A stretch of DNA of 64,000 nucleotides from Verrucomicrobiota bacterium (lineage in GTDB: Bacteria; Verrucomicrobiota; Verrucomicrobiia; Opitutales; Opitutaceae), in contig JACRQG010000046.1 of assembly GCA_016222805.1 (NCBI GenBank), positions 186,001 through 250,000 on the forward strand. Direction: 5' to 3'. Of this stretch, positions 8,239 through 37,059 are shown piece by piece. The notes beneath the pieces are model-generated. The model saw nothing but the letters and a program-made list of their open reading frames with translations. It did not search any database and was not told where the DNA came from. Each line of letters opens with the position of its first letter. Within the stretch, counting starts at the first letter, position 1. The position numbers were made by a program, and so were the translations under genes.

Positions 8239-8270
8239 GGCGGACGAAGGTAATCGCACGATTGCGACTC

Positions 8271-19111: not shown

Positions 19112-20419
19112 TCAACCGGCCGCGTTTGTCCGGCGCTGCACTGCGCGGGCCAGATCCCGATCGAGGAACTTCAGGTAGGCCAGCAGCAGTCCGCCGGCCA
19201 CCAGCGCGATGATAATCGGCACGAGGCCGAAGACGGTCTGAAAGCCCAACGACTCCCGGTACCGGCCCACCGCGAGTGCTCCCACCCCGCCACAAAGGGA
19301 ATTGAGGCAGTTGGAGATCCCGATGGCCGTCGAGCGTTTCTCCGGAGTCACGAGCTCGAAGATTAAGGGATGGCTGTTGAGTTCCCCGAAGGCGCGGCAC
19401 AGCTGGAACAGAAACGCGCTGCCGAGCACGATCGCCGGGCCGGTGGCCACCGAAAACAGAATCGGCCACGGGAGCGCCAACACGTAGAAACCCAGAAGGA
19501 GCGCCATCCGCCGCTTGGGCTGCCTGGCGCCGACGTAATCCGACAGCAGGCCGCCGCCGAGCGCCCCCAGAAACACCGGACCGGTGATGGCCAGATTACC
19601 GAAGAAACCCGACTGCGTCAGGTTCATCTTGAAACTCTCGTAGAGGAACAGCGGCAGCCAGGTGATGAGCATCCACGCGCCAAGCGAGAAGATCGCCACC
19701 GCCACCATGATCGCGACCACCGAGGGCGTCCGCAGGATCTCCGCGACCGTCGCCCCCAGGCTCGCCTGCACCCGCGGCGCGGCGGGTCCGCCCGCGCCGT
19801 CGCTCGTCCCCACCGGGATGTCGCGCAGGAACAACGCCTGGAGCAGGGCGAGCGCGAGGCCCGCCCCGCCCAGCACGATCAGCGTCGGCCGCCATCCGTA
19901 ATGGTCACCGATCCAGCCCGCGCCGGCGCCGCCCACGATCGGTCCGAGGTTCATGCCGATGACGAGCGCCGCCACCGCCTTGGCCCGCGTCGCGGTGGTA
20001 TGGTAGTCGGCCACGAGGGCCAGGGCCGCGGGAATGTAGAACGCCTCCGTCACCGCCAACAGCACCCGCGTCGTCATCAACTGCGCGGGCGAGGCGGCCA
20101 GACCCGCCGCCACGGTCACCAGGCTCCAGAGCGTCAGGCACCCGACGATGACTTTCTGCCGCGACAGACGATCCCCAAAGAACCCGGCCAACGGGGAACA
20201 AAGGGCATAGGTCCAAAGGAAGACGGTCATCAGCGCGCCGACAAACAGATCGGACAGCATCAGTTCCTTCCGGATGAGCGGCATCACGGAGAAGATGACC
20301 ACGCGATCCTCGAGGTTCAGGAACCCCGAGAAGAAAAGCAGACCAACCACGACCCACTTGTAGCCGGGGCTGCGCGCCAGCGCTTCCCTCCAGGCCCGGA
20401 ATCCGTTTCCGCCGCTCAT
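19112..20419 (-). CDS. MFS transporter
   Basis: 435 residues from the ATG at 20419. Major facilitator with the expected hydrophobic segments and the loop-2/3 motif 'GFFGDRLSRQKVIVG' (canonical G-x-L-aD-r-x-G-r-r type). 'NLEDRVVIFSVMPLIRKEL' in helix 1 resembles the anion:cation symporter and hexuronate carriers. The second half has 'GGGLLSDYVGARQPKRRM'. It probably imports a sugar acid or small glycoside made by the periplasmic enzymes nearby. It is separated from the FAD oxidoreductase by 228 bases that hold a GC-rich hairpin, so it may be its own unit. Substrate cannot be derived from sequence. Confidence 0.88.
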   Translation of the reverse strand: MSGGNGFRAWREALARSPGYKWVVVGLLFFSGFLNLEDRVVIFSVMPLIRKELMLSDLFVGALMTVFLWTYALCSPLAGFFGDRLSRQKVIVGCLTLWSLVTVAAGLAASPAQLMTTRVLLAVTEAFYIPAALALVADYHTTATRAKAVAALVIGMNLGPIVGGAGAGWIGDHYGWRPTLIVLGGAGLALALLQALFLRDIPVGTSDGAGGPAAPRVQASLGATVAEILRTPSVVAIMVAVAIFSLGAWMLITWLPLFLYESFKMNLTQSGFFGNLAITGPVFLGALGGGLLSDYVGARQPKRRMALLLGFYVLALPWPILFSVATGPAIVLGSAFLFQLCRAFGELNSHPLIFELVTPEKRSTAIGISNCLNSLCGGVGALAVGRYRESLGFQTVFGLVPIIIALVAGGLLLAYLKFLDRDLARAVQRRTNAAG

Positions 20420-20540
20420 GATCGCCCCCCCGATCCCGGGCCCACCCACCCCCGCCCGGCGGTCCCGCCCCGCAGGCTCGTTGGCATGAAGATCGTGGGA
20501 GCCATGCACATCCTAGCGAAGCACGGCCTCAGACCTCTTC

Positions 20541-20664: not shown

Positions 20665-21684
20665 TTAGGCTCCGGCGAGCTGCGCCGCGGTCAGCTCATT
20701 CAGCAGCGGCCGGCCGCCCGCGTAGCGCACGAGATTGAGCGTGAAGATCTCCCAGAGCCGGATTCGGAACTTGGGACTCAGGCTCGAGCCGGAGATGTGC
20801 GGGGTGAAGATCACGTTGGGAAAGGCCCAGAGAGGGTGATCGGGCGGCATCGGGTAATGGTAGTGGGTGTCGATCGCCGCGCCGGCGATCCAATTCTCCC
20901 GCAGGGCGCGCAGCAGCGCCTCCTCGCGCACGATCGGGCCGCGCGCCGGATTCAACAAGTACGCCGTGCGCGGCAAGGCCCGCAGTTCCCGCTCTCCAAT
21001 CAGGCCCTCCGTCGCCTTGGTCAACGGCATCGCCACCACGAGAAAATCCAGCCCGGCGAGAAACTTACTTTCCTCTCCGTTCCGGAAGACCCGGTGCGGC
21101 AGCACCCCCTCGGGATCACCGGTGCCCGGGACGCCATACACCTCGCCCACCGGGCCCACGCCGTGGCGCGTCAGGACATGCACCTGCAGACCGAACTGGC
21201 GCGCGAGCCGTGCTGTCTCGCGGCCGATGCCACCATAGCCCCACAGCCCGACCGTCAGCCCCCGAACCTCGCGCTGGAAGCGAGCCCCGCGATCCCACAC
21301 CCGGGCCTCCTGGTGGCGCATCATCTGCGGGAGATCGCGGACCAGGTTGACCATCATCGCCAGATTCCACTCCGCAATCGGCACATCGAAACAGCCGCGG
21401 GCGTTGGTAGCTCGGATCCCCCGGGCCGGAAGACCCAGGCCGAAAAGCTGCGTGTAACCGGTGGAGGCTATCTGCACCCACTTCAGGGCGCGCAGATCCG
21501 CGATATTCTGCGGTGGAAACGTGCAGAAGAGCACCTCGACGTCGCACAGGCGCGCCGGGTCGAGCGCGCGCACGTGCTCGGCCGGCGTGTCAATCACGTC
21601 GACGGCATAGGCCATCGATCCCTGCAGGCTGGCGAGAGCCGCAGGCTCCGCCGCCACGTCGACGAGGATCTTGATGGGCTTCAC
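20665..21684 (-). CDS. D-isomer-specific 2-hydroxyacid dehydrogenase-like protein, catalytic Glu replaced
   Basis: 339 residues. NAD-binding motif 'GYGGIG' at 149-154, substrate-binding Arg in 'NPARGPIV' (R248), general-base His in 'TPHISG' (H296). The Glu that normally precedes the Pro in 'DVFxxEP' is Tyr here ('IDTHYHYPMP', Y277), so the usual His-Glu relay is missing. Compare the protein at 57859, which keeps it (VREP). The gene starts inside the stop of the dehydratase gene at 21681 (ATGA, 4-base overlap), pointing to a shared pathway: the dehydratase would make a 2-keto-3-deoxy acid and this protein could reduce a keto acid. It may have changed specificity or lost activity. Confidence 0.85.
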   Translation of the reverse strand: MKPIKILVDVAAEPAALASLQGSMAYAVDVIDTPAEHVRALDPARLCDVEVLFCTFPPQNIADLRALKWVQIASTGYTQLFGLGLPARGIRATNARGCFDVPIAEWNLAMMVNLVRDLPQMMRHQEARVWDRGARFQREVRGLTVGLWGYGGIGRETARLARQFGLQVHVLTRHGVGPVGEVYGVPGTGDPEGVLPHRVFRNGEESKFLAGLDFLVVAMPLTKATEGLIGERELRALPRTAYLLNPARGPIVREEALLRALRENWIAGAAIDTHYHYPMPPDHPLWAFPNVIFTPHISGSSLSPKFRIRLWEIFTLNLVRYAGGRPLLNELTAAQLAGA

Positions 21685-22895
21685 GTCGACAGGACCTTGC
21701 CCGGCACGCTGTTGAACTCCCCGCTGCCCGGCTGGAACGGATACCGGCGCTTGATTTCGTCCGTCAGCACCACGCCCAAACCCGGCCGGTCGGGCGGCAG
21801 CACGTAACCGTCCTTCATCACCAGGCCGCCATCGATCACGTCAGCATGCAGGCCCGCGTAGTCCGGCGCCACCTCAAGGATGCAGGTGTTGGGCGCGGCG
21901 AATCCCGCATGGATGTTCTGCATGAGCGAGCCGCCCGCGCCCCACGCGTGGGTGGCCACCTGGCGGCCGCGATCCGCCATCATCCGCGCCACTTTCATGA
22001 ACTCCCCCAGTCCGCCGGTGAACGAGGCGTCCGGCTGCCCGATGTCGAACGACTCCTCCTCCGCAAACACCCGCCACTCGTAGGCCGCCGTGAGGCACTC
22101 GCCGCCGGCGATCGGCACCGTGGTCGCGCGGCAGAGCTCCGCGTAGCCCCAGGGATCCGTGTACGGCAGGGGTTCCTCGAAGAAGAACAGATCGTACGGC
22201 TCCGTCGCCTTGGCCGCAGCGACGGCAATCTCCAGCGTCCACGTCTCGCCCGGGCTGTTGCCCATGTGCCCGTCGAGCATGAGCCATGCGTCCGGCCCGG
22301 CATGCGTCCGCATGAAGGCGAGCTTGTCGGCCTCGAAGTCCGCGGCCTCGGCCGGCGTCATCGGCGTGTACCAGCCCCGGCCGGGCGTCAGGCTGCCCGT
22401 CGCGACTTTCAGGCCGCGAAAGCCCAGGGAGAAATAGTGATCGATCTTTCGCGCGAGCTTGTCCTTGGGATAGTTGCTCGGTCCGCCCGTGGCATAGGCC
22501 GGCAGCCGCTCGTGACGGCACCCGCCGAGGAGCACGTGCACCGGCAGGCCGAGCTGCTTGCCCTTCAGATCCCACAACGCCGCCTCGATGCCATTGAGCA
22601 CCGAGGCGCCCAGGCCCACGCGGCACCAGAAGTTCCCGCAATGGTACATCCGCCGCCAGAGTTCGGGAATATCCTCCACCGTCTGCCCGATCACGATCGG
22701 GGCAAAAAAATCCACAATCGCGGGCACAGCCTCCGGGCAGAAGTACCCGGCGTAGGTTTCGCCGATGCCGGTGTGCGGGCCGTCGGTCAGGACTTCGATG
22801 AAGGCGGCGCTGCGCAACTGCCGCGCTTCGCGGAGAAAGGGGTCGTGGGTGCACGGCCCGGTGAGGAGCGTGGTGCGGACGGCGGTGATCATCAT
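21681..22895 (-). CDS. Mandelate racemase/muconate lactonizing-type sugar-acid dehydratase (enolase superfamily)
   Basis: 404 residues from the ATG at 22895 (another ATG follows directly at 22892). Enolase-superfamily barrel: Lys in 'GFRGLKVATG' (K163), metal ligands in 'LMLDGHMG' (D208, with H210), 'FFFEEPL' (E240) and 'AGGECL' (E266), and the general base in 'ATHAWG' (H316). This arrangement fits acid-sugar dehydratases of the MR subgroup (for example galactonate or rhamnonate dehydratase); the exact sugar is open. It is transcribed divergently from the GntR/LacI-type regulator with 68 bases between starts, so the operator at 22948-22964 could control both. It overlaps the dehydrogenase gene by 4 bases. 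Confidence 0.9.
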   Translation of the reverse strand: MMITAVRTTLLTGPCTHDPFLREARQLRSAAFIEVLTDGPHTGIGETYAGYFCPEAVPAIVDFFAPIVIGQTVEDIPELWRRMYHCGNFWCRVGLGASVLNGIEAALWDLKGKQLGLPVHVLLGGCRHERLPAYATGGPSNYPKDKLARKIDHYFSLGFRGLKVATGSLTPGRGWYTPMTPAEAADFEADKLAFMRTHAGPDAWLMLDGHMGNSPGETWTLEIAVAAAKATEPYDLFFFEEPLPYTDPWGYAELCRATTVPIAGGECLTAAYEWRVFAEEESFDIGQPDASFTGGLGEFMKVARMMADRGRQVATHAWGAGGSLMQNIHAGFAAPNTCILEVAPDYAGLHADVIDGGLVMKDGYVLPPDRPGLGVVLTDEIKRRYPFQPGSGEFNSVPGKVLST

Positions 22896-22947
22896 CGCGA
22901 GACGGCAAAGTGCCGGGGCGCAAAGAGAATTGAAAGGTGGTCGCGCC

Positions 22948-22964
22948 TGCCAAAACTGCTGGCA
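22948..22964. promoter_or_regulatory. Proposed operator TGCCAAAACTGCTGGCA
   Basis: A 17-base element with inverted half-sites TGCCA/TGGCA. It lies between the divergent dehydratase and regulator genes, and its last base is the A of the regulator ATG at 22964. An almost identical element (14 of 17 positions) lies at 36953-36969 before the TonB receptor operon. Two such matches, both in front of genes of the same locus, favour a real operator for the adjacent regulator. Binding is inferred. Confidence 0.7.
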
Positions 22965-24067
22965 TGTTGGCGCCCCGAGGAAATCCGTCATGGGAAGTCG
23001 CCCGCGGCAGCCTGGCCGCCCGCGCCGCCGCGTTGCTGCGCGACGCGATCCATGCGGGAGAGCTCCGGGATCCGCTCCCGGGCGAGCATGAACTTGCCCG
23101 CCGCCTTGAAATCAGCCGCCCCTCCGTCGGCGCCGCCCTGGCCACGCTGGCGGCCGAAGGTCTGATCATCGTGCGCCAGGGCTGCCGCTCGCGCCTCGCC
23201 CCGCGGGCCCGGCGGCGCGCCCCCGCCCTGCCGGCCTCCGCCTGCATCGTGCTGCCGTCGTCCACGGATGAGATGTACCAGAGGCAGGATCACATCCGGC
23301 TCGAATTGCGGGCCCGCTTCGCCAGCCGCGGGATCAAATGGAACGAGGTCGCCTGCCCGCCGCTGTTTGGCCAACGGCCGGAGAAACACCTGCCAAAGCT
23401 GGTGGCCAGCCGTCAGCACACCTGCTGGATTCTGCGCATGGCGCCGGAGAAGACCCAGCGGGTGTTCGCGGACGCCGGACTGCCAACGCTCAACATCGGC
23501 ACCTGTTATCCCGGCATCCAGCTGCCCTCCGTGGATGCGGATTTCGACGCCGTGGGCTTTCACGCGGCGAGTACGATCCTGGCCCGCGGGCATACCCGCA
23601 TCGGCCTTATCCTCCCCTTGGAACGCCGGGCCGGGGACGACGCCTGCCGGCTGGGATTTCGACGCCGGATCGGTCAGGCGTCTCCCGGGACGGAGCTGAC
23701 CGAAATCGCCGCCCCGGAAGATCCCGGCCGGTTTCGCGCTCGCCTCGACCCGATTCTCCGCGCCCCGCGCCGGCCGACGGTTCTCTTCACGATGCGCCAG
23801 CCGCTGACGCTCGTCACGCTGCTGCACGTGCTGGCCTCGGGCCTGCAAGTGCCGCAGGAGATCTCCCTGGTGTCGCGCGACAGTCATCCGCTGTTTGAAG
23901 CCGCCATTCCCGAGCTCACACGCTACGAAGGCGCCACCTCCGCGCTCGCCAACCGCATCGTGCGCATCACCGCCAACCTGCTCGCCGGCCGGCACGTCGC
24001 CCCGCGGCCGTCGCTGGTCACGCCCGTGTTTGTGCCCGGAGGAACCCTCGCCGACCTGCGGCGCTGA
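22964..24067 (+). CDS. GntR-type winged-helix / LacI-type sensor hybrid transcriptional regulator
   Basis: 367 residues from ATG 22964; a GTG at 22937 would add nine residues and place the operator inside the gene. N-terminal GntR winged helix (~10-75): 'LAARAAALLRDAIHAGEL', 'PLPGEHELARRLEISRPSVGAALATL', 'GLIIVRQG'. The remainder is a periplasmic-binding-protein-like sensor of the LacI/GalR kind ('ASTILARGHTRIGLILPLE', 'VPQEISLVSRDSHPLF'). This AraR-like combination usually senses a sugar or sugar derivative. It is convergent with the SIAE-type esterase gene (7-base gap) and divergent from the dehydratase. The shared 17-base operators suggest it controls itself, the dehydratase and the operon from 36866. 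Confidence 0.87.
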   Translation: MLAPRGNPSWEVARGSLAARAAALLRDAIHAGELRDPLPGEHELARRLEISRPSVGAALATLAAEGLIIVRQGCRSRLAPRARRRAPALPASACIVLPSSTDEMYQRQDHIRLELRARFASRGIKWNEVACPPLFGQRPEKHLPKLVASRQHTCWILRMAPEKTQRVFADAGLPTLNIGTCYPGIQLPSVDADFDAVGFHAASTILARGHTRIGLILPLERRAGDDACRLGFRRRIGQASPGTELTEIAAPEDPGRFRARLDPILRAPRRPTVLFTMRQPLTLVTLLHVLASGLQVPQEISLVSRDSHPLFEAAIPELTRYEGATSALANRIVRITANLLAGRHVAPRPSLVTPVFVPGGTLADLRR

Positions 24068-24074
24068 GCCGGCC

Positions 24075-25673
24075 CTACTTCAGCCCGTGGGTGGACTCCG
24101 GCCACTCATCCGTTCGAAACGGCGACGCCGGCAGGCCAGCGCGATTGAAGAGATTCCCGTCGGGATCATCCGCCCAGGCGTAACGAACCGCAACCGGCAT
24201 CGGCACCTGAGGGCTGCGCACGATAACGGTGTCACCCTCGATGCCGGCCTCCGCCGGATGAAACCTCCGATCCTCGCCCGCGACCGCAAAACCCCGCAGT
24301 CCCTCGCCTCCGCGCGTCGCGAGACCTGATCCGCCCGTCGCGAAACGGACCATCGCCGCCCCTCCCTCGAAGCGCAGGCCCGCATAGCTCGGCCCGGACG
24401 ACACGACTTCCTGGCCGTAAACCTTGGCCAGCGCCAGCCGCGCCAGCCGCTCGCCCACCGGACGCTTGTTCCGCGGGTGAATGTGATCCTCCCCCGCGTC
24501 CAGCGCGACCGCCAGGTGGGTGTGCGGCACAGTCTGCGCCGTCCGCAGTTGCGCTTCCCGCAACTCCGCCCACGCGGAAATGCCAACCACCTTCGGCGGC
24601 TGGCCGGGCACGCCAAGGCGCGGCAACTGGACGATCAAGAACGGCATCTCCTCCCGCCCCCACCCCGACCGCCAATCGTGGATCATCGCCGGCAGGAGTC
24701 GCTGGTACAGCCACGCCTTGGACGCGTTGCCTTCTCCCTGATACCAGAGCGCGCCGCTGACGGAGACCGGGAACAGCGGCGCGATGCGGGCGTGGAAGAG
24801 GCCCGCCGGCAGATTGCGATGGCCGGCATGCCAATAGGGAGGAATGGGCTTGGCGTCCGCCGGCGAACCATCGCGCCGCCAGGCTTGCAGCCGCTCCTCG
24901 TATTTCTGCTGCTCCGCCGGAAACGCCTCCATGCCCTGCCGCACCCACGCCAGGTGTGGGGCGAAGTCCGGATCGGAAGCCAGGGCCGCCGGGCTCATCC
25001 ACGCCTGGATGTGGGTACCGCCCCAGGAGGTATCGATCAACCCCACCGGCCGCCGCAGCGCCCGATGCAAGTGCTCGCCGAAAAAGTAGGCCACCCCGGA
25101 AAAATCGCCAGCCGTCGCCGGCGAGCAGACCTTCCACTCTCCCTCCACGTCTTCGCGCGGCCCGGGCGACGAGGCGTTCTTCGTGCGCGAAACGAGAAAG
25201 TAACGTATCCCCGGATGCTGCGCTGCCTGAATCTCCGCCTCGGAGTCCAGCACCCCGCGGTCATCCTTGTGTTTGTACGCCATGGTCATCGCCATGTTTG
25301 ACTGACCGGCGCAGATCCACACCTCGCCGCAGAGGACGTCGCGAATGCGAATCGTGTTGGTCGAGCGCAGGGTAATCTCGTGTGGGCCGGCCTCCGCCGG
25401 CGGGGCCATCGTCGTCCGCCAGCGTCCCGCCGTATCGGCGGTCACGCGGTGTGCGCTCTGCCGCCAGCTGACCGCGATCTCCACCGGCTCTGCGGGTTGG
25501 GCCCTGCCCCAGATCACGACGGGAGCGCCCGCCTGCAACACGAGGTGGTCGCTGAAAAACGAAGAGACGCTCACCTCGGCCCGCGGAGCCACCCCTCCGG
25601 CGGCCAGCGCGCCCCCAAGCCAGGCCACCCGGAGAAGTCGCGCGGTGCTCACCCTTCGCCTCTCGCGATTCAT
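24075..25673 (-). CDS. Sialate O-acetylesterase-like secreted esterase (SGNH-type)
   Basis: 532 residues from the ATG at 25673. Signal peptide (LLRVAWLGGALAAGGVAPRAE), N-terminal beta domain ('FFSDHLVLQAGAPVVIWG'), then the esterase domain with the Ser motif 'WICAGQSNMAM', the block 'GLIDTSWGGTHIQAWMS', 'GALWYQGEGNA' and the C-terminal Asp-His pair region 'LDAGEDHIHPRNK'. Such proteins remove acetyl groups from sialic acid or plant/algal polysaccharides. It overlaps the fusion gene by 4 bases (ATGA) and is the last gene of the operon from 36866. Its presence implies that the substrate carries O-acetyl or similar esters. Confidence 0.88.
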   Translation of the reverse strand: MNRERRRVSTARLLRVAWLGGALAAGGVAPRAEVSVSSFFSDHLVLQAGAPVVIWGRAQPAEPVEIAVSWRQSAHRVTADTAGRWRTTMAPPAEAGPHEITLRSTNTIRIRDVLCGEVWICAGQSNMAMTMAYKHKDDRGVLDSEAEIQAAQHPGIRYFLVSRTKNASSPGPREDVEGEWKVCSPATAGDFSGVAYFFGEHLHRALRRPVGLIDTSWGGTHIQAWMSPAALASDPDFAPHLAWVRQGMEAFPAEQQKYEERLQAWRRDGSPADAKPIPPYWHAGHRNLPAGLFHARIAPLFPVSVSGALWYQGEGNASKAWLYQRLLPAMIHDWRSGWGREEMPFLIVQLPRLGVPGQPPKVVGISAWAELREAQLRTAQTVPHTHLAVALDAGEDHIHPRNKRPVGERLARLALAKVYGQEVVSSGPSYAGLRFEGGAAMVRFATGGSGLATRGGEGLRGFAVAGEDRRFHPAEAGIEGDTVIVRSPQVPMPVAVRYAWADDPDGNLFNRAGLPASPFRTDEWPESTHGLK

Positions 25674-28003
25674 GCCAGCCGCGTGAAGCCGCGCTGCCCG
25701 CGCGGCACCCCGGACTCCTCGGCCAGGCGCCCCGCCGAGATGACCTCCTCCAAGCGGGTCCACGACGCCTCCATCGCCTCGAGCAGTTGTGCGTAGTGGG
25801 CCTCTGCGTGCGCCAGCATGAGATAGTGGTAGGTGCCCACCAATACGCCGTGCGTCCGCATCTGCCGTACGTGCAGCGCCTGCGCCAGCGGAGCGTCGGG
25901 CCCGAGGTCAAAACCGATCGATGGCGTCGCCGGCATCCCGCTCACGACGACGCGGCAGAGGGGATGGCGCGCCGCCAACTCGCGCAGACCCGCCTGCAGC
26001 TTCTCGCCGCGCGTCCAGATCGACTCTTGCACGCGCAGCCGCGGCACCTTCTCCAGCACGGCCAGCGCCGCCGCCGGCCCGACCCCGTCCGTCCAGTAGC
26101 TGGACGAAATGAAGCTCCCCTCTCCCGCCTGCATGACCGGCTCGCGGCCCACCACCACTCCAAAGGGAAAACCGTTGCTCATGGCCTTCGCGTAAACCGC
26201 GAGATCCGGCTCGATCCCGAGTCGTGCCATCGCCCCCGGAAATCCATAGCGCAGGCCGCTCGTGACTTCGTCCACCACGAACACCGCCCCGGCCGCCCGA
26301 CAGCGTGCCCCAATCTTTCCAACGAAGTCATCCTGCGGCCACTGCGCGCGCATCGGCTCCATCACCACCGCGGCGAGATTGCCGCCGAGCTGCTGCAATG
26401 CGCGCTCGAACGACGCGAAGTCATTGTAGCGGAAAGGCACCGCCGTGCCGCGCAACTCCCGCGGCACGCCCCGGGGCTCGAGACCGGGCAGGAGGTGGCC
26501 GTTGAGGGCGTCGGTCTCGCCCAGATTGGCGGCGAGGTACCAGTCGTGCCAGCCATGATACCCGCAGAACGCGACCCCGCTCCGGCCGGTCGCCGCCCGC
26601 GCGATGCGCACCGCCATGGCCATCGCGTCCCCGCCCCCGCGCGCATAACGGACCTTGCCGGCCCAGGGGTGCAGGGCGAGCAACTGCTCGGCCAACTCCA
26701 CCTCCTGCGGATTCACCAACGAGCAATAGGTACCGAGGGAGACCCGGCGGCGCACGGCCGCCGACACGTCGCGGTCGGCGTAACCCAGCAGGATCGCGCC
26801 GATGCCCCCCGCAAAATCGACGTAGCGCCGGCCGTCGAGACCCCAGACTTCGCAGCCCGCGCACCGCGAAAAGTACGACGGCCACTGCTTCGCATCGAAC
26901 ATCTCCGCCCGTTTCGAGAGGAGTCCCGTGCCACCCGAGATCACCGTGCGCGCCCGCTGCCACAACTCCGGCCCAGTCGGTGAGACCGGCGATGCGGAAG
27001 CTGGCAGGTGCGGGGCCAGCAGGCGGCACGCGTTGTGCAGGAAGATGTCGGCGATGTCGCCCCGCGTGAGTCCGGCATCCTCGCACGCCTCGCGCAGGCA
27101 GGTCAGCGATTCGAGTCCCACGAGCGCCATGGCACTCGTGGTTGGCGCCTGGTAGTCCGCCCGCAGCAGTTCGGGGTGCAGCCAGAAGAAGAAGTCGCCC
27201 GTCGTCACGCAGCGCCCGCGCAGCTCGCTGACCGCGAAGTCGGACCCCCACAACACGCGTCGTGGCCCGAGCACCGCCAGGGCCGCCCGGAAGGCCTCCG
27301 TCTCGCAGATGGCAGACGTGTCCACGACCGCGTGGTCGAGATCCGCGATTGCGTGCAGCCCCGCGCGGGCGTGGCGGTAGTTGAAGCTCCGCGCCACGTG
27401 CGCGAGGATCAGTCGCACCTCCGGATACCGGCGGGCCAATCGGCGCAACGAACGCTGGTTCTGCGGGTCCGCAATCGCTTCGTCGCGCACGAGGTGCAGC
27501 ATCAGGCAGCCCCGCACCTCGTGGAGGATCTCCCACATCCAATCCGGGGCAAACTCCTCCACGGACGCGTTCATCGTGTCCGGCCGTCCCGCATAGCAGT
27601 GGTAAACCTTGATCCCACAGAATCGTCCGCTCCGCAGCGCCGCCGCCACCTGTTCGCGGTCATCCGCCGGTGAGGCGAGCAGTAGCGCCCGACTCAACGG
27701 CGAACCGCGGTCTCGGACCTCGGCCTCCACCCAGGCGTTGATCGCCGGCCGATCGGCCGACTTCTGCGGCATGCCGAAGTACAGGCCGTGAATCGTCCGG
27801 TTGGGCATGACTCGCTGCAGCGCCTGCCGGTGCTCCGCGCAGCCCAGCGGCCCCTGCCCCTCCAGGAACGGCCAGGCTCCCCGGGCGAAGTGATCCGGAT
27901 GGTAAGGATGGGCGTGGATGTCGTAGACCTCCTGTGGCAGGAAATCCGCCAGCCGGGCGGCGATGACGTGGTCGCGGTCGGTCAGCTGCGAGACGTAGTT
28001 CAT
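25670..28003 (-). CDS. Amidohydrolase / class III aminotransferase fusion protein
   Basis: 777 residues from the ATG at 28003, which fits the domain start; the frame is open further upstream but overlaps the next gene. N-terminal half (~1-330) is an amidohydrolase-2-type TIM barrel: 'VYDIHAH' (D28, H30, H32), K132 in 'GIKVYHCY', H170, H202 ('ILAHVA') and D255 ('LWGSDF'). C-terminal half (~345-777) is a class III PLP aminotransferase of the glutamate-1-semialdehyde aminomutase type: 'WGLDGRRYVDFAGGIGA', 'CGYHGWHDW' (phosphate side), D578 in 'VVDEVTSG' and the PLP lysine K606 in 'YAKAMSNGFPFG'. No signal peptide. Both active sites look intact. It sits between a propeller gene and the esterase; substrate unknown. 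Confidence 0.88.
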   Translation of the reverse strand: MNYVSQLTDRDHVIAARLADFLPQEVYDIHAHPYHPDHFARGAWPFLEGQGPLGCAEHRQALQRVMPNRTIHGLYFGMPQKSADRPAINAWVEAEVRDRGSPLSRALLLASPADDREQVAAALRSGRFCGIKVYHCYAGRPDTMNASVEEFAPDWMWEILHEVRGCLMLHLVRDEAIADPQNQRSLRRLARRYPEVRLILAHVARSFNYRHARAGLHAIADLDHAVVDTSAICETEAFRAALAVLGPRRVLWGSDFAVSELRGRCVTTGDFFFWLHPELLRADYQAPTTSAMALVGLESLTCLREACEDAGLTRGDIADIFLHNACRLLAPHLPASASPVSPTGPELWQRARTVISGGTGLLSKRAEMFDAKQWPSYFSRCAGCEVWGLDGRRYVDFAGGIGAILLGYADRDVSAAVRRRVSLGTYCSLVNPQEVELAEQLLALHPWAGKVRYARGGGDAMAMAVRIARAATGRSGVAFCGYHGWHDWYLAANLGETDALNGHLLPGLEPRGVPRELRGTAVPFRYNDFASFERALQQLGGNLAAVVMEPMRAQWPQDDFVGKIGARCRAAGAVFVVDEVTSGLRYGFPGAMARLGIEPDLAVYAKAMSNGFPFGVVVGREPVMQAGEGSFISSSYWTDGVGPAAALAVLEKVPRLRVQESIWTRGEKLQAGLRELAARHPLCRVVVSGMPATPSIGFDLGPDAPLAQALHVRQMRTHGVLVGTYHYLMLAHAEAHYAQLLEAMEASWTRLEEVISAGRLAEESGVPRGQRGFTRLA

Positions 28004-28032: not shown

Positions 28033-29535
28033 TCAGGGCGTGAACCGCAGCGCGAAGACATCCGCATCTTTTAAGACGAAGCGCAGGCGCACCGGCCGGC
28101 CGGCGAGCGCGCCCAGGTCGGAACGGCCCCGCCATTGCACGACGCGCTCCAGTTCGTTGCCAATCTGCTCCTGGCAGTCCGCCAGCGCATAGCCGGGGAA
28201 CGGCCGTCCGTCGGCATCCTGCACCTCGACCTTTACTCCGCCGGCAGCCGACGTCGCGAAGTTCAGGGTCAGCGCGCGGCCAGCGAAGATCAGCGGCTTG
28301 CTCAGCATCTCCCCGCCGTGGTAGTCGGCGCGCAGCGACGCGAAGCCGTCGAGCCGCAGCGAATACCGCCGCAGGTGCGCGGTCGGCTGGGCGTAGTCCT
28401 GGTTCACATAAAGAGACATTTCCGTCGGGCCCGTCGGCACGACGTTCAGCGCGGGGTAGTTCGTCCGCGACACCCAGTTCTGCGCGCCGATGCCGCCGCG
28501 GATGAATCCCTCCAGGAAAGTGCGATCGTAGAAACCCGCGTGCGCCGCCCCTTCCCCGGGGCGCGTCGTCATGAAGATCGCGTCCGAAGTGTCCTTGAAA
28601 TAGCCGGGGTTCACCTGGATGGCCGCCGCCTGCTCGTCCGTCAGCACGCGACGCCGCGGCATGAAGCGCGCCGCGATTGCCACGTAGAGGTGCGGGGCGC
28701 GGAAGTAGGGACTCGTCTGGTTGGTGTAGAGGTGTTCGATCGGCGCGGGGCCCGCCGGATGCCGGTACTCCAGCAGGACCGGCGGCGACCAGTGCGTGAA
28801 GTCGGCGCTGTCGCTGCGGACGATGCGGCGGATGCTGTTTTCGAACACCCGGAAATAGCACAGGTATCGCCCTTCGGTCGCCGACCAGAAGGGCACGTTC
28901 TGCGAGTCGAACATGTACTTGTAGGGAACCATCGCCTTGGTGATCACCGGCCCCGCCCCCATCCGCTGCCAGCGCAGGCCGTCCGCGGACTTCCAGGCGA
29001 TCAACCCGCTCTCCATCGTGCCACCGAGGGCCTTGAAACGCTCGTCCGCCGGCACGCCCGGTCGCTCATCGAGAAACGGGGAGAAGTTGTGCGAGGCGGG
29101 CGGCGCATCGGCCAGGACGATGTTGTTCCGGGTCGAACCGTGGGCGGCGAACTGCGTGAGCTCCGGCCGCGTCCAGGTCACGCCGTCGCGGGACTCCGCG
29201 CGGCACGTGACCTCGCTGTTGCTGCCGTCGCGGTCCGCCACGGGCTTACCCCGGTAGTAGGCGTAGAGGCGGTCGCCATCACGCACGACAGTGGTGTAGC
29301 CGCAAAACGGTCCTTCCCATGGCTGGTCGAAGCGGAGCACCACCCCCTCGTCGCGCGGGGAGTGCAGGTGCAACCGCGCGCCGGTCAGCTTCTCAATCAG
29401 AAAGTGGTCCACGAACAACTCCCGCCGCGACCCGATGTCGAGGGGGGCAGTCGCACCCTGGAGGCTGCCGGGCGCAAGCAGCAGCAGGTGGCCGAGGGCG
29501 ACCCAGAGGAAGCGGAGACGAGGGAGAATGACCAT
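28033..29535 (-). CDS. Secreted glycoside-hydrolase-like beta-propeller protein, paralogue 4 (diverged)
   Basis: 500 residues from the ATG at 29535, at the signal 'LRFLWVALGHLLLLAPGSLQG'. Shares the family plan with paralogues 1-3: 'RRELFVDHFLIEKL', 'FDQPWEGPFCGYTTVV', 'RAESRDGVTWTRPEL', 'WKSADGLRWQRM', 'SQNVPFWSATEGRYLCYFR', 'EHLYTNQTSPYFRAPHLYVAIAARF' and the C-terminal 'LTLNFATSAAGGVKVEVQDADG', 'WRGRSDLGALAGRPVRLRF'. Sequence identity to paralogues 1-3 is clearly lower. It lies 29 bases before the fusion gene and 37 bases after paralogue 5. Function is presumed glycoside hydrolase or binding protein, but no catalytic residues are assigned. Confidence 0.8.
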   Translation of the reverse strand: MVILPRLRFLWVALGHLLLLAPGSLQGATAPLDIGSRRELFVDHFLIEKLTGARLHLHSPRDEGVVLRFDQPWEGPFCGYTTVVRDGDRLYAYYRGKPVADRDGSNSEVTCRAESRDGVTWTRPELTQFAAHGSTRNNIVLADAPPASHNFSPFLDERPGVPADERFKALGGTMESGLIAWKSADGLRWQRMGAGPVITKAMVPYKYMFDSQNVPFWSATEGRYLCYFRVFENSIRRIVRSDSADFTHWSPPVLLEYRHPAGPAPIEHLYTNQTSPYFRAPHLYVAIAARFMPRRRVLTDEQAAAIQVNPGYFKDTSDAIFMTTRPGEGAAHAGFYDRTFLEGFIRGGIGAQNWVSRTNYPALNVVPTGPTEMSLYVNQDYAQPTAHLRRYSLRLDGFASLRADYHGGEMLSKPLIFAGRALTLNFATSAAGGVKVEVQDADGRPFPGYALADCQEQIGNELERVVQWRGRSDLGALAGRPVRLRFVLKDADVFALRFTP

Positions 29536-29572
29536 CGGAGTCGGCGGGGGAGTGAGACGGAGGAAGCGTGCT

Positions 29573-31135
29573 TCAGTCGGCCACGTACACGGCATAGACC
29601 CGGGCTGTACTGCCGACCGGAAACGTCACCTTGATCGCCACCGGCCGGTCCGCCGGCAAGTCGACAGAGCGGTTGCCCGGCCAGACCACGTCGACGGCGA
29701 GTCCGCTGGCGGACACGACCGCGGCGGCCGCACCCGAGTACCCGGGCAGTGCGCGATCCCGGGCGTCGAGCAGTTCCACCCGCAGCGGTGCGCCGCCGGT
29801 CACCCCATCGACATTGAGGCGTAGCTTCGCGCCGCGACCGGCCGTGAGCGGCGCCGTGACGAAATGCGCCGGGTTGTCGTCCTCCTTCGGCGTGAGGTGG
29901 CCGAAGCCGTCGCGGCGCAGGGTCGCCAGGCCGATCTCCATGGACTTCAGCTTCGCCCCGGTGTCCCAGTGCGAGTACCAGAGCATCGTGTGCTCGCCCT
30001 CATTGACGAAGGCATGGCCCTGGAGGAGCGCGATGTCGTCCCACTCCCCTTCCCGGCCGCGGGAGATGACCTTGAAGTCCGCCACCGGCTCGCGGAAGTG
30101 GATGCCGTCGTTGCTCAGGATCAGGCCGAGATCGACGCGCACGCCGAGCAGGTGCGGGGCCCCTTTCGGCGGCGGAGTCGGCGCGTCCTGCCACTGGCCG
30201 TAGAGCCCGATCAGCACGTTGCCGCGATTCCAGATCCCCGCCCCCATGTGCGTCTGCTGCCCGGTCACCCGGGGGTTGGCGAGTTGCCCCGGCCGGGCGA
30301 AGGCCAACGCCTTGGCCTGCGACCAGTGCACGAAATCCGGCGACCGGTAGGTCAGCATGAGACGGCCGGCATCGGTGCCATCGTTGCGTCCCGCCCAGGG
30401 AGCGATCAGCTGCCCGGGCGTGTAGTAGAAGTCACCGAAGCGGTAGAGGCCGGAGGCCTCGAAGCGCTCACCGCCGGCATTGGCCGGGCGGTCGCCAACC
30501 ACCCGCCACGTCAACCCATCCGCGCTGGTCGCGGTCACCGTCGCGCAGATCCGCTTCTCCTTCACCCCGAGGTTGCTCATGCCGCCCGGGATGTCCTCGT
30601 ACGGCACATGGGCGATGAAGGCCGCCTTGTAGCGCCGGCTCGGGTCCGGGTCGGCGGGGTCGTGCATGACCGAGAGGAAGTCGTTCACGCGGGTCAGCGA
30701 GAACGGCACACCTTCGATCAGGCAGATGTTGTTCTTCCGGCCGCCATTGAACTCGACGAGGCCGAGTTCCGGTTTGTTCCAGTGCACACCGTCCTCGCTT
30801 TCCGCGTAGCACATCGGCCGCCACATGCCCGGAGCCTGGCCCTTCAGGATCTGGGTTTCGAACATCCCGAGGTACCACATGCGGAACTTGCCGCCGACCT
30901 TGAGGACCGAGCCGTACAAGATCGCGTGCCCGTGATCCGGCGCGCCCGCGGGGCCGCGCCGCAGGACCGGATTGGCCGGGTGCTTGGTCGCGGGCACCAG
31001 GGTGAGCTTCAGGTTGTGCTGCCAGGGAATGCTGTGGTCGTCGAAGGCGAAGAGCACGCGCTCCGCGGCCGGAGCCGGGAGGAGAAGCCGGCCACCGAGG
31101 AAGAAACAGGCGGAAGCAAGGAGGCGTAGTTTCAT
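29573..31135 (-). CDS. Secreted glycoside-hydrolase-like beta-propeller protein, paralogue 5 (most diverged)
   Basis: 520 residues from the ATG at 31135; signal 'LLASACFFLGGRLLLPAPAAE'. Propeller-type repeats: 'GKFRMWYLGMFE', 'YAESEDGVHWNKPELGLVEFNGG', 'TATSADGLTWRVV', 'LTYRSPDFVHWSQ', 'LILSNDGIHFREP', 'GEHTMLWYSHWDTG'. The C-terminus keeps the closing beta-domain pattern in weaker form ('KLRLNVDGVTGGAPLRVELLDARD', 'RPVAIKVTF'). It is 38 bases downstream of the M14/esterase gene and 37 upstream of paralogue 4. It resembles predicted GH43/GH32-like proteins with 'DGxxWxKPxLG' blades. Its greater distance from the others suggests a different target. Confidence 0.78.
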   Translation of the reverse strand: MKLRLLASACFFLGGRLLLPAPAAERVLFAFDDHSIPWQHNLKLTLVPATKHPANPVLRRGPAGAPDHGHAILYGSVLKVGGKFRMWYLGMFETQILKGQAPGMWRPMCYAESEDGVHWNKPELGLVEFNGGRKNNICLIEGVPFSLTRVNDFLSVMHDPADPDPSRRYKAAFIAHVPYEDIPGGMSNLGVKEKRICATVTATSADGLTWRVVGDRPANAGGERFEASGLYRFGDFYYTPGQLIAPWAGRNDGTDAGRLMLTYRSPDFVHWSQAKALAFARPGQLANPRVTGQQTHMGAGIWNRGNVLIGLYGQWQDAPTPPPKGAPHLLGVRVDLGLILSNDGIHFREPVADFKVISRGREGEWDDIALLQGHAFVNEGEHTMLWYSHWDTGAKLKSMEIGLATLRRDGFGHLTPKEDDNPAHFVTAPLTAGRGAKLRLNVDGVTGGAPLRVELLDARDRALPGYSGAAAAVVSASGLAVDVVWPGNRSVDLPADRPVAIKVTFPVGSTARVYAVYVAD

Positions 31136-31173
31136 GGGGAGGCAGTGGGCAGGACTGGTCAGGCTTGAAAGGC

Positions 31174-33756
31174 TCACGGTGACGCGGGCCCAGGCCGCAG
31201 AAAGTCGACCAGAGCCTCCTGGAGGTTGGCGTGCCCGGTCCGGCCATCCCCGCGGTAGCGCAACTCGACCTTTACGCCGAGCGGCTGCAGTGCTCGCGCG
31301 AGCATGAGGCCCGACACGGCGGAGTGCGTTGGATCCGTCTGCGGCTCCCCGGGCACCGGCGGCTTGTCCTGGTTCGGAAACTCCAAAAAGACCGGCGGAT
31401 CGTCGCGGCTGGCGAATTCGATCGGGGAAAAGCGGCGGATCTGCGGCAGGTGCGCCTCGCGCGCGGCGAGGAACGGCGCAAACGACTCCGCGCGGGACGA
31501 CCCGGCGTAACCGAAGGCGTGCGCGCCGAACACGCTATTCGGGATCCACTCGCGCAGCTGCTGGGGGTCGAGCGAGACGACCGGGGACTTCGCGGCCACG
31601 GCCGCGAGTCGCGTGGACGCCCGGGCGATCGGATCCGCGCCCTGCGGATCTGCCATGTCGTCGTGCAACGCCAGCCAGAGCACGGCGCAGCCGCCGGCGC
31701 TTACCCCGGAACCGGCAATGCGCGCCGGGTCCACCTTCCACTCGGGCGCCTTCGCCCGCACGAACTGCAACGCACGACGGGCATCCCCGAGCGGCCACTC
31801 CACCGGCGGCGACACGCCCGCCGCGTGGGCATCGACGAGGAAGCGGTAGTTCACCGCCGCGACCGAAATCCCGGCTTTGAGCAGCGCCCGCACGTCGAGG
31901 TGGCGGTGGATTTCGCTCTTGTCGTCGGCGGCCCAGCCGCCGCCATGCACATAAAACACCAGGGGCGTGGGCTCCGCCGAACTCGCCTGCCAGAAGTCGA
32001 GGGTCTGGCGAAAGTGGGGACCGTAGGGCACCTCGGACCATGTCGGCGGAGTGGCGTCGGCCTCCGCCGTCCCCTGCTCCCGCTGCACCTCGGGCGGCGG
32101 CATCCATCCGGTGCGGTGCTGCTGGACCGGTTCGTAGCGGCAAGTCACAAAGAACAACCCGGTGCGGCGGGCGCGGTCCGGCGGCACATGGATCTGGACC
32201 TGGGTAAACCCGTCCGCGGGCCAACTCTCGTAACCGTCCGTCGGACTCGGCGCGAGGCCCTCGCCGTTCAACTCGACCTGCAGCCCGCGCACCTCGACAG
32301 CGGGCAGGCGCAGGCGAAAGCCGATGCCGTGCTGCAGCGACCCGGCATCGTTGTCCTTTGCCAGGAGCAACGCCGGTGCGGGGGTGTCGAGCCCCAGCTT
32401 GATTTCCGGCCCCGCTTCCAGGAAGCGCTCGAGCGCCCCGGCGGCGTGGCCGAACTGCTCGCGCAGGTTCCGCCGCAGACCCGGCAGGTCGGCGGGCGCG
32501 AGCGCCCGTTTGGCGTCCGCCGTCACCGCGCAGACGAAGGACGCCCGCCCCACCGTCTGCGGATACAGGAATCCCACCGCGAAGTCCGCCTGCCGATTCC
32601 ATAGTTCCACCCGGCTGCGCCGCCGTTCCGCGGCCGTCGCCCCATAGGCCGTGACAAAATGACCGACAAAGGACTTCACCCGGTTGACCGGGTAGCCCTC
32701 CGTCCGCTCATCCAGCCAAATCCCGTTCCCGATGCGCAACAGGCCGCGCGCCCGCGCCACCGCGCTCTGCTCCCACGCCACCTCCAGGGTCGCGGTCATC
32801 GTGTGGTACTTCGCGTATCCGTAGTGGGCGCTGTAGAACAACGCCGACCCACTCCAGGTCTTCTTCGCCAACGGGGCGAACTCCGGGCCGCCGAACACCC
32901 GCTGCGCATCCGCCTCGAAGCGGTCGGATGGGAACCCCGCCTCGCGACCCGCAGCGATCATCGCCTCGGTCACGCGCCAGTCCCACGGTCGCAGCGCATA
33001 GTTGGAATAGGCACTGCCGGTGATCTCCGTCATGATCTGACCGTGATACATCCGCCGCGCCCCGAGTTGGTCTGGCGCATACTCCTGGAGGCCGGTGCCG
33101 TGAAGATCGAGGTGCACGTCAGGCTGGTACTGATCGAACACCGACACTACCGCCGCCAGTTCCGGCGCCTCCTCGGGCTTGAGGAGGGTGAGCGATTTCA
33201 CATCCCAGACTTTGCCCGCCGCTCCCGTCCCGGTGTAGGGATCCACTTTGTGATCGTTGCGGAATCGATCCGTATGGAAAAGGGCCAGGGGATTCACCAC
33301 CGGCATCGCCAGCACGACCTGCCGCCGGCGGGTCAGCACCGCGTCGGGATCATCGCCCAGCAGCCACTCGATCAGGGCCAGCGCGCCGGTCGTGCCGCTG
33401 CGCTCCGGACCGCTGTGCAGCGCCGTCACGAGGCAAACCTGCTTGTCCGTGTCGGGGACCGTGCGATCCGTGATCCTGAGCAGCCAGACCGGCAGGCTCC
33501 GACCGCTCAGCCCGCGCGCCTCGAGGGTCACCCACTGCGGGTGCCGCTGCCGCCAGAACCGCAGCGTGCCCTCGTACTCCGCCTGCGTCAGGCGGTGCAT
33601 GGGCGGATAGGCCGTCGCCACCTCCGCCGCACGCCCCGTGGCCGGCGCCAGCGCCAGCCACGCGGCTGCGGCGAGGGCCCGGCGCGCCCCTCCTGCTCGC
33701 GCGGACACCGCGCCGCGCCCGGGGGGCCGCGCATCGTGGTTCGAATCCCGGGTCAT
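31174..33756 (-). CDS. M14 carboxypeptidase-like / alpha-beta hydrolase fusion protein
   Basis: 860 residues from the ATG at 33756, preceded by a GAGG; a signal or anchor segment lies at ~24-44 (ARRALAAAAWLALAPATGRAA). N-terminal half is a zinc carboxypeptidase M14: 'ALHSGPERSG' (ligands H114, E118), third ligand H219 in 'HLDLHGTG', and a probable catalytic Glu in 'TATLEVAWE' (E325 or E329). After a beta-rich linker comes an esterase/lipase-like domain (~560-860): oxyanion motif 'HGGGW' (604-608), nucleophile S686 in 'GSGVSAGG', Asp region 'DDPPVFLEF', and His in 'TGHANLQEAL'. Both active sites appear complete. The first gene after the TonB receptor (20-base gap), so exported hydrolase of a conjugate (amide plus ester) is a reasonable inference. 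Confidence 0.85.
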   Translation of the reverse strand: MTRDSNHDARPPGRGAVSARAGGARRALAAAAWLALAPATGRAAEVATAYPPMHRLTQAEYEGTLRFWRQRHPQWVTLEARGLSGRSLPVWLLRITDRTVPDTDKQVCLVTALHSGPERSGTTGALALIEWLLGDDPDAVLTRRRQVVLAMPVVNPLALFHTDRFRNDHKVDPYTGTGAAGKVWDVKSLTLLKPEEAPELAAVVSVFDQYQPDVHLDLHGTGLQEYAPDQLGARRMYHGQIMTEITGSAYSNYALRPWDWRVTEAMIAAGREAGFPSDRFEADAQRVFGGPEFAPLAKKTWSGSALFYSAHYGYAKYHTMTATLEVAWEQSAVARARGLLRIGNGIWLDERTEGYPVNRVKSFVGHFVTAYGATAAERRRSRVELWNRQADFAVGFLYPQTVGRASFVCAVTADAKRALAPADLPGLRRNLREQFGHAAGALERFLEAGPEIKLGLDTPAPALLLAKDNDAGSLQHGIGFRLRLPAVEVRGLQVELNGEGLAPSPTDGYESWPADGFTQVQIHVPPDRARRTGLFFVTCRYEPVQQHRTGWMPPPEVQREQGTAEADATPPTWSEVPYGPHFRQTLDFWQASSAEPTPLVFYVHGGGWAADDKSEIHRHLDVRALLKAGISVAAVNYRFLVDAHAAGVSPPVEWPLGDARRALQFVRAKAPEWKVDPARIAGSGVSAGGCAVLWLALHDDMADPQGADPIARASTRLAAVAAKSPVVSLDPQQLREWIPNSVFGAHAFGYAGSSRAESFAPFLAAREAHLPQIRRFSPIEFASRDDPPVFLEFPNQDKPPVPGEPQTDPTHSAVSGLMLARALQPLGVKVELRYRGDGRTGHANLQEALVDFLRPGPASP

Positions 33757-33776
33757 GCCTCGATGCTTCAACCCAC

Positions 33777-36866: not shown

Positions 36867-36952
36867 AGGGGTAATTCTCCTGCGAGTGCCAAACCGGAAC
36901 CACGCGGGACCCAAGGTACCGCGGGGCAGCCCGGATGAAAGCGCGGGCCACC

Positions 36953-36969: not shown

Positions 36970-37059
36970 AGTCGGTCGGAGGGTCCCGGGATCGGCGCCG
37001 CCGTCCGGCGATGCGGGCCAACGAGAGCCGTCCGGGGCCCCGCGGCTGGAGACGCCCGC

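What the first reader, a model, noticed from the sequence alone, without database searches (positions are those of the whole stretch)
25670..28003. Amidohydrolase fused to a class III aminotransferase in one 777-residue protein
Both halves keep their active-site residues (D28, H30, H32, H202, D255; then D578, K606). I know of no standard fusion of these two families, and it sits in a glycan-type operon with an acetylesterase. One idea: the first half removes an N-acyl or lactone/amide group or decarboxylates, and the second moves an amino group, that is, metabolism of an amino or keto sugar acid by channelling.
Basis: partly seen in the sequence, partly recalled or inferred. Interest (0 to 1): 0.8.

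Follow-up and report, generated by a model that had tools for sequence, protein, structure and literature searches.

The report
Two-in-one enzyme for unusual amino-sugars
A real and widespread bacterial protein joins a metal-dependent hydrolase to an amine-removing enzyme, and its neighbours and relatives suggest that it helps take apart sialic-acid-like amino sugars that other bacteria build with a close relative of its second half.

Summary
Window 28003-25670 (minus strand) encodes one 777-residue protein, Amidohydro_2 plus Aminotran_3, with the expected catalytic residues. It is no artefact: 72 fused ORFs, window included, duplicates removed, occur in Verrucomicrobiota, Bacteroidota and Planctomycetota. 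The same two genes lie side by side, unfused, in seven further loci, once in reverse order.
The aminotransferase half belongs to a subfamily whose unfused members often sit in pseudaminic/nonulosonic-acid BIOSYNTHESIS clusters. At fused-type loci such genes were not found (0 of 73 stretches). Many of those loci instead carry transporters, SusD, sialidase-like propellers, an HpcH/HpaI aldolase or oxidoreductases. The window's own locus has none of these tested markers close by, but has MFS, receptor-like and sugar-acid genes.
Best reading: a catabolic enzyme in which the amidohydrolase frees an amine (probably N-deacylation) and the aminotransferase removes it, mirroring aminotransferase plus N-acyltransferase in synthesis. 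The nonulosonate-related catabolic role rests on genome context; the bond cut and the substrate are inferred. I saw no description of this enzyme in the paper listings searched.

The parts
25670..28003 (-). Amidohydrolase-aminotransferase fusion, 777 aa
26999..28003 (-). Amidohydrolase half (residues 1-335): TIM-barrel model with D28-x-H30-x-H32 at strand 1, K132 at the end of strand 4, H170 after strand 5, H202 after strand 6, D255 after the last strand
25673..26974 (-). Class III aminotransferase half (residues 344-777): D578, K606 and subfamily motifs FCGYHGWxDWYLAAN and C-terminal GFxRL
24075..25763 (-). SASA-type acetylesterase (true start uncertain, by reading probably close to 25673)
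22937..24067 (+). GntR plus periplasmic-binding-domain regulator (cluster c32; a relative also lies on the contig of the split, reversed pair in L130)
21681..22991 (-). Enolase-superfamily sugar-acid dehydratase-like protein (cluster c30, 4 loci)
20665..21684 (-). D-2-hydroxyacid dehydrogenase (cluster c11, 9 loci)
19112..20509 (-). MFS transporter (cluster c8, 12 loci)
28033..29595 (-). Protein of the c2 family (best relative 71% identical), weak BNR_2 match below the cut-off
29573..31177 (-). Second c2 family protein (cluster c2: 48 members at 28 loci)
31174..34473 (-). BD-FAE alpha/beta hydrolase with a Peptidase_M14-like stretch in one ORF (start probably too early; cluster c19, 7 loci)
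33777..37238 (-). TonB-dependent receptor-like ORF (named by reading, not scanned)

Best explanation
The protein is a bifunctional enzyme of a catabolic pathway for an N-acylated, sialic-acid-like sugar (nonulosonic acid) or the amino-hexose that results when such a sugar is split. The TIM-barrel half, a metal-dependent hydrolase, removes the acyl group and frees an amine; the PLP half then transfers that amine away (probably to a 2-oxo acid such as 2-oxoglutarate), leaving a carbonyl for oxidoreductases of the locus. A retro-aldol enzyme (HpcH/HpaI or NAL/DHDPS type, where present) gives pyruvate. Shown here: the fusion, its conservation, the residue sets, the close kinship of the PLP half with aminotransferases of nonulosonate biosynthesis clusters, the absence of biosynthesis markers in the fused stretches examined and the presence of uptake and degradation genes at many of them. 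Inferred: order of steps, N-deacylation as the hydrolase reaction, metal use, identity of the sugar, passing of the free amine between the halves.
For: Fusion recurs in three phyla with all ligands kept. Same pair as adjacent genes: L112, L122, L143, L150, L155, L156 (order AH-AT; 8-bp overlap in L143, 2-bp gaps in L150 and L156, 69 bp in L155) and L130 (order AT-AH). Unfused members of the same aminotransferase subfamily lie in nonulosonate clusters: L127 with PseI over its cut-off (450.5 vs 340.25 bits) plus cytidylyltransferase- and acetyltransferase-like genes, L126 with NeuB-, PseB- and cytidylyltransferase-like genes (below cut-offs), and both plasmid hits (2 of 2 at E 1e-40), one with pseB, pseC, AKR, GNAT, a cytidylyltransferase-aminotransferase fusion, pseG, pseI. 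Phylum sample of 288 genomes, 29 places: nonulosonate-synthesis markers beside 0 of 12 aminotransferases with an amidohydrolase partner and 9 of 17 without (Fisher p 0.0033; 0.0089 if the weak case L160 is not counted). 83 of 111 fused-invariant aminotransferase positions are kept in at least 90% of 14 biosynthetic relatives, 33 of them absent from the 3 outgroup sequences. AKRs of five catabolic-type and seven biosynthetic loci form one clade (100/98). Catabolic-type genes in the 73 stretches: SDR 32, SSF 23, HpcH 14, PhyH 14, Gfo 10, BNR propeller 10, AKR 7, SusD 6, NAL-like 4. No PseI/NeuB match in the host genome (no positive control in that call). Published: class III aminotransferase and 'alpha/keto reductase' among pse genes of Aeromonas flagellar islands (PMC7874193, passages).
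Against: No activity or structure is known to me for any member. The amidohydrolase half has its best fold matches among COG3618 proteins and COG2159 decarboxylases, not known N-deacylases, and its one NCBIfam hint is L-fucono-1,5-lactonase at E 0.0084, 15.7 bits against a cut-off of 400. The window itself has none of the tested SDR, SSF, HpcH, PhyH, Gfo, Asp-box BNR, SusD or NAL markers at E 1e-5 over its 64 kb, and its only AKR hit is 32 kb away; its neighbourhood (enolase-superfamily dehydratase, 2-hydroxyacid dehydrogenase, SASA) also fits a plain sugar-acid pathway. Each catabolic marker family occurs at fewer than half of the fused-type stretches. SDR is not discriminating: relatives also lie beside the aminotransferase in biosynthetic L141, L142, L148; L154 has a BNR hit and L160 a weak SSF hit. 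Five of 17 unfused aminotransferases have no marker of either kind and three have parts of the catabolic set without an amidohydrolase in the stretch. L111 keeps an amidohydrolase 74% identical to the window's with no fused aminotransferase. The five Bacteroidota AKRs tested fall outside the starred AKR clade.
Confidence: 0.45

Rival explanations
1. The first half is a sugar lactonase (COG3618-like): it opens a sugar lactone made by a dehydrogenase of the locus, and the aminotransferase removes a free amino group of the resulting amino-sugar acid.
For: Best PDB fold match is a COG3618 amidohydrolase (4dlf, E 1.4e-9, TM 0.59/0.68); weak L-fuconolactonase hit; the window locus has a sugar-acid dehydratase-like and a 2-hydroxyacid dehydrogenase gene.
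Against: K132 at the end of strand 4 together with HxH, H, H, D, invariant in 72 of 72 (K132, H170, H202, D255) or 70 of 70 with letters, is the residue set of binuclear carboxylated-lysine hydrolases (recalled); identity to the lactonase-type structure is 13%.
Confidence: 0.25
2. The first half is a decarboxylase, hydratase or C-C hydrolase of the COG2159 kind acting on a keto acid, and the aminotransferase acts on the product.
For: Profile search finds Amidohydrolase-2 proteins and gamma-resorcylate/salicylate decarboxylases; many decarboxylases and LigY in the fold search.
Against: Only short stretches match by sequence; no aromatic-ring genes among the 29 neighbour-cluster representatives annotated.
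Confidence: 0.12
3. The PLP half is an aminomutase (glutamate-1-semialdehyde aminomutase type, moving an amino group within one molecule) rather than a transaminase.
For: The best NCBIfam match and many PDB matches are glutamate-1-semialdehyde aminomutases.
Against: Far below the equivalog cut-offs (hemL 167.4 vs 527.3 bits; PRK06209 209.4 vs 486); the top PDB hit is the transaminase FumI.
Confidence: 0.1
4. The fusion makes, rather than breaks, a surface sugar.
For: Close kinship with biosynthetic aminotransferases.
Against: 0 of 73 fused-type stretches carry PseB, PseC, PseG, PseI/NeuB or cytidylyltransferase; 0 of 12 in the phylum sample; transporters, SusD and receptors at many loci instead.
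Confidence: 0.06

Closest known systems
Class III aminotransferases of pseudaminic/nonulosonic-acid biosynthesis clusters (plasmid pSMR1-1 of Pseudosulfitobacter; Patescibacteria L127; by published gene order also Aeromonas flagellar islands)
   Same: Same subfamily: 83 of 111 fused-invariant positions kept in at least 90% of 14 biosynthetic relatives, same C-terminal FxRL-type tail, related AKR at several loci of both kinds
   Different: They stand alone or are fused to a cytidylyltransferase, beside pse/neu genes; the window protein is fused to an amidohydrolase with no such genes near. Membership of the Aeromonas gene was not tested by sequence.
FumI, aminopentol aminotransferase (PDB 6hbs, 6hbv)
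   Same: Top PDB hit by sequence (E 4e-39) and fold (E 3.4e-27) for the second half
   Different: 26% identity in the fold alignment; single domain; acts in fumonisin breakdown (recalled)
COG3618/COG2159 (Amidohydro_2) lactonases and decarboxylases, e.g. 4dlf, 2dvt, 3s4t
   Same: Same fold class for the first half
   Different: 11-16% identity among the 50 matches listed; not fused to a transaminase
Glutamate-1-semialdehyde aminomutase HemL
   Same: Same PLP fold, 22-27% identity in the listed matches
   Different: Below the equivalog cut-off

Membership tests
Pfam Amidohydro_2 (PF04909) | Score over the gathering cut-off | tested here: met
   45.1 vs 26.4 bits
Pfam Amidohydro_2 (PF04909) | TIM barrel with HxH on strand 1, His after strand 5, His after strand 6, Asp after the last strand (feature set recalled) | tested here: met
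Binuclear (carboxylated-lysine) amidohydrolases, definition recalled | Lys at the end of strand 4 bridging two metals | tested here: inconclusive
   K132 invariant and at the end of strand 4; metal content and carboxylation not testable
COG3618 lactonases | Closest relatives by sequence; lactone hydrolysis | tested here: inconclusive
   best fold match 13% identity; NCBIfam L-fucono-1,5-lactonase model 15.7 vs 400 bits
Class III aminotransferases (PF00202) | Over cut-off, with PLP lysine and aspartate | tested here: met
   130.7 vs 30.5 bits; D578, K606 in 72 of 72
Glutamate-1-semialdehyde aminomutase (TIGR00713, PRK06209) | Equivalog cut-off | tested here: not met
   167.4 vs 527.3 and 209.4 vs 486 bits
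Nonulosonic-acid biosynthesis enzymes | Located with PseB/C/G/I or NeuB and a CMP-sugar synthetase | tested here: not met
   0 of 73 stretches; no hit in the window at E 1e-5
Nonulosonate catabolism | Growth or activity on a nonulosonic acid | not testable with these tools
   context only

The most novel reading that the evidence does not exclude
This is the signature enzyme of an undescribed pathway by which environmental Verrucomicrobiota, Planctomycetota, Bacteroidota and spirochaetes eat bacterial sialic-acid-like sugars (pseudaminic/legionaminic type, perhaps those with an extra amine such as the 8-amino nonulosonate of Flexibacter maritimus). It reverses the aminotransferase plus N-acyltransferase step of synthesis within one polypeptide, using an aminotransferase, and at some loci a reductase, shared with the makers.
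Probability: 0.25. Interest if true: 0.85.

Novelty: new variant of a known kind. Interest (0 to 1): 0.62.

Why it matters
Bacterial nonulosonic acids coat flagella, capsules and lipopolysaccharides, but the titles and abstract starts listed by my searches (20 of 35 papers listed, 4 of 4) showed no breakdown pathway for the pseudaminic or legionaminic type; one 2026 paper speaks only of possible pseudaminidase-like activity of a neuraminidase (PMC13317340, passages). If the reading is right, the fusion is a genomic marker for such a pathway, helps give a function to a class III aminotransferase found in several pseudaminic clusters, and shows one enzyme subfamily used by both makers and eaters of such sugars.

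Tried and rejected
Artefact (frameshift or mis-assembly): rejected, same fusion in 72 ORFs, window included, one duplicate contig removed. One single origin of the fusion: a tree holding all 72 fused aminotransferases together is rejected (AU p 0.000519), so there were several fusions or, as likely, fissions and losses; the tree cannot say which, and long branches are present. In the first tree one outgroup row, L029, was a wrong ORF; I dropped L029, L035, L024 and the short L047. The comparison of the amidohydrolase site with eight paralogues of the same genome failed because wrong reading frames were taken for most of L001-L008; only the rows L112, L122, L130, the C51 paralogue and c4 of that call are used. 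Viral search: 2 loci, L131 in a NeuB-like context, L132 a more distant aminotransferase. No match in phage records at E 1e-20. Known sialate lyase: the DHDPS-family gene of 4 Bacteroidota loci matches N-acetylneuraminate lyases in the PDB only weakly (E 1.1e-9) and reaches no NCBIfam cut-off. Sialidase: one c29 propeller matches an uncharacterised structure best (E 2.4e-12) and solved sialidases only in part (best 2.1e-8). The c2 family, including window genes, has no strict Asp box in 48 of 48 members. Shared tunnel: not examined, since no coordinates are given out. One of the five further fused loci, L136, is on a contig of the same length as L079 and is taken to be the same record, so it is not new evidence beyond. 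Literature (listings only unless passages are named): nothing on this fusion (0 papers; 16 listed; 4 listed); nothing on the aminotransferase's reaction (1 listed; 20 of 92 listed; 2 listed), with passages of PMC3694923, PMC7874193, PMC8397731, PMC3438082 and PMC7371886 seen; PMC8397731 and PMC3438082 gave nothing that bears on it.
Full report
WHAT IS THERE. The ORF is on the minus strand, 28003 to 25670, 777 residues, one stop. Pfam finds Amidohydro_2 (83-329) and Aminotran_3 (376-726), both over cut-off. AlphaFold2 with a 34-row alignment gives mean pLDDT 86.8 and pTM 0.84; the amidohydrolase half alone, with 17 rows, gives 92.8. In the half-model the conserved residues sit where the catalytic site of this superfamily lies (recalled): D28/H30/H32 at strand 1, K132 at the end of strand 4, H170 after strand 5, H202 after strand 6, D255 after the last strand. 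They are invariant in 72 fused sequences except that two rows have gaps at the first three. The lysine makes the set look like that of binuclear hydrolases with a carboxylated lysine (recalled definition); this could not be tested.

IT IS REAL AND WIDESPREAD. With five stretches fetched from the order search and the window, 85 stretches hold 73 fused ORFs; L110 and L043 are the same contig, leaving 72, whose aminotransferase parts all differ. Hosts are Verrucomicrobiota (Opitutaceae kin at up to 78%), Bacteroidota (Chitinophaga alhagiae, Membranihabitans, Arenibacter latericius) and Planctomycetota. In a draw of 288 genomes of the window's phylum, 27 have a match at E 1e-80 or better, at 29 places, 8 of them fused.

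THE PAIR ALSO OCCURS AS SEPARATE NEIGHBOURS. L112 and L122 (Sphaerochaeta) have the amidohydrolase gene just before the aminotransferase gene; L130 has them in reverse order. In the phylum sample L143, L150, L155 and L156 have the amidohydrolase (26-31% identical) just before the aminotransferase, with an 8-bp overlap in L143, 2-bp gaps in L150 and L156 and 69 bp in L155. The reversed pair cannot come from simple splitting (inference). The window's genome holds a second, unfused amidohydrolase of this kind (L051:9392-10438, 32% identical) in a run of genes with an Aminotran_3 protein, an FGGY sugar kinase and an arabinose-isomerase-like protein. Against this, L111 has the amidohydrolase without a fused aminotransferase.

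WHAT THE AMINOTRANSFERASE HALF IS KIN TO. Unfused relatives at 42-46% identity sit in nonulosonic-acid synthesis clusters. L127 (Patescibacteria) has a pseudaminic acid synthase over the PseI cut-off (450.5 vs 340.25 bits), a second synthase-like gene, a cytidylyltransferase-like gene and a hexapeptide acetyltransferase-like gene directly before the aminotransferase; L126 has PseB-, NeuB- and cytidylyltransferase-like genes, below their cut-offs. A tblastn of plasmids at E 1e-40 gave two hits, both in such clusters: Halorussus aquaticus, and Pseudosulfitobacter pseudonitzschiae with pseB, pseC, AKR, GNAT, the aminotransferase fused to a cytidylyltransferase, pseG and pseI. Papers (passages seen only): a class III aminotransferase and an 'alpha/keto reductase' lie among the pse genes of Aeromonas flagellar islands (PMC7874193); a cytidylyltransferase-aldo-keto reductase bifunctional gene follows PseC in a Vibrio cluster (PMC7371886); a glutamate-1-semialdehyde aminomutase-like gene lies between PseG-like and cytidylyltransferase genes in a Legionella O-antigen region (PMC3694923). 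I did not test those published genes by sequence. Of 111 positions invariant (95% or more) in fused aminotransferases, 83 are kept in at least 90% of 14 biosynthetic relatives, and 33 of those are absent from the three outgroup class III enzymes, including the C-terminal F773, R775, L776 (its 77 fused rows include L136, the same record as L079). This suggests the same kind of substrate.

SYNTHESIS VERSUS BREAKDOWN. Markers PseB, PseC, PseG, PseI/NeuB and cytidylyltransferase were found at 0 of 73 fused-type stretches (72 fused plus L111), against 6 of 18 unfused stretches: L126, L127, L131, L133, L134 and the more distant L132 (three of the 18, L045, L050 and L051, were fetched for an amidohydrolase). 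In the phylum sample: 5 further fetched fused loci 0 of 5 (L136 repeats L079); 4 split pairs 0 of 4; 17 aminotransferases without amidohydrolase in the stretch 9 of 17 (one, L160, only by 24-26% matches). Adding the window, G154 and G022 (0 of 3) gives 0 of 12 against 9 of 17, Fisher p 0.0033, or 0.0089 without L160. AKR, GNAT and SDR hits were not counted as synthesis markers. Of the other 8 unfused loci, three (L149, L151, L159) carry parts of the catabolic set and five carry no marker; some stretches are cut by contig ends, so a partner gene may be missed.

WHAT FUSED LOCI CARRY INSTEAD. In the 73 stretches (flanks up to 9 kb, often shorter; whole window): SDR 32, SSF symporter 23, HpcH/HpaI aldolase 14, PhyH 14, Gfo/Idh 10, BNR propeller 10, AKR 7 (8 with a distant one in the window), SusD 6, NAL/DHDPS-like 4. 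MFS transporters, a NanM-like Kelch protein, 2-hydroxyacid dehydrogenase and regulators recur too. Each marker family is at fewer than half of the loci. The order HpcH-AKR-Gfo-SDR lies near the fusion in five Bacteroidota loci (L059, L063, L065, L066, L067) and, rearranged, beside the split pair in Sphaerochaeta. The propellers of clusters c10 and c29 have 1-4 Asp boxes by a strict and 4-5 by a loose pattern, and one c29 member matches solved sialidases in part. The window itself has none of these markers at E 1e-5 except a distant AKR: its neighbours are MFS, two FAD oxidoreductases, 2-hydroxyacid dehydrogenase, enolase-superfamily protein, GntR-type regulator, SASA, c2 proteins and receptor-like ORFs. 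AKRs of five loci labelled catabolic by me (L041, L122, L143, L151, L159; L151 and L159 have no amidohydrolase in the stretch) and seven biosynthetic loci form one clade (100/98) apart from 11 of the 12 AKR matches of the window's genome; five Bacteroidota AKRs fall outside that clade but on the same side of the root (94/86); L063's AKR was not included. So the shared reductase is supported for the non-Bacteroidota loci only. The host genome shows no PseI/NeuB match (uncontrolled), so the sugar would come from outside.

MECHANISM. Synthesis of these sugars adds an amine by an aminotransferase and then acylates it (PseC then PseH, recalled). The fused loci hold a kindred aminotransferase with a hydrolase in place of the acyltransferase and, at some loci, an aldolase in place of the synthase. 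The simplest reading is the reverse path: remove the acyl group, remove the amine, handle the carbonyl with oxidoreductases, split off pyruvate. The top PDB relative, FumI, deaminates a CH3-CH(NH2)- end (recalled), which resembles the end of a nonulosonate bearing an 8-amine, a sugar reported from Flexibacter maritimus (PMC3210612, passages). That position is a guess.

LIMITS. The amidohydrolase half has no close characterised kin that I found: best fold matches are a COG3618 protein at 13% identity and COG2159 decarboxylases; profile search finds only short matches. So N-deacylation is less sure than the catabolic role. The window's own locus is among those without the commoner markers. Trees show that fusion state is not a single clade.

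VERDICT. Observation confirmed; interpretation partly supported; a conserved two-domain enzyme, not described in the paper listings I searched, tied to nonulosonate chemistry by its aminotransferase half and to catabolism by the surroundings of its relatives.

Noticed in passing
L134:11266-13299; L126:10336-12000: In synthesis clusters the cytidylyltransferase is fused to the class III aminotransferase (677 aa) or to the aldo/keto reductase (554 aa), so the same small set of enzymes is joined in different combinations.
   Followed up: partly
31174-34473 (-): BD-FAE alpha/beta hydrolase with a Peptidase_M14-like stretch in one ORF; cluster of 7 loci including the window.
   Followed up: no
L051:4766-12210 (same genome, contig C51): Second sugar locus with an unfused amidohydrolase of the same kind, an Aminotran_3 protein, an FGGY kinase and an arabinose-isomerase-like protein.
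   Followed up: partly
L111:9001-10041: Opitutaceae locus with an amidohydrolase 74% identical to the window's half but no fused aminotransferase after it.
   Followed up: no
L063:7571-8584 and L069:5415-6437: Two protein families without any Pfam or NCBIfam match recur beside the fusion in Bacteroidota loci (clusters c20 and c23).
   Followed up: no
6778-8487, 10667-12163, 28033-29595, 29573-31177 (all -): Four members of the propeller-like c2 family in one window, two of them in tandem upstream of the fusion; the family occurs at 28 loci and has no strict Asp box.
   Followed up: partly
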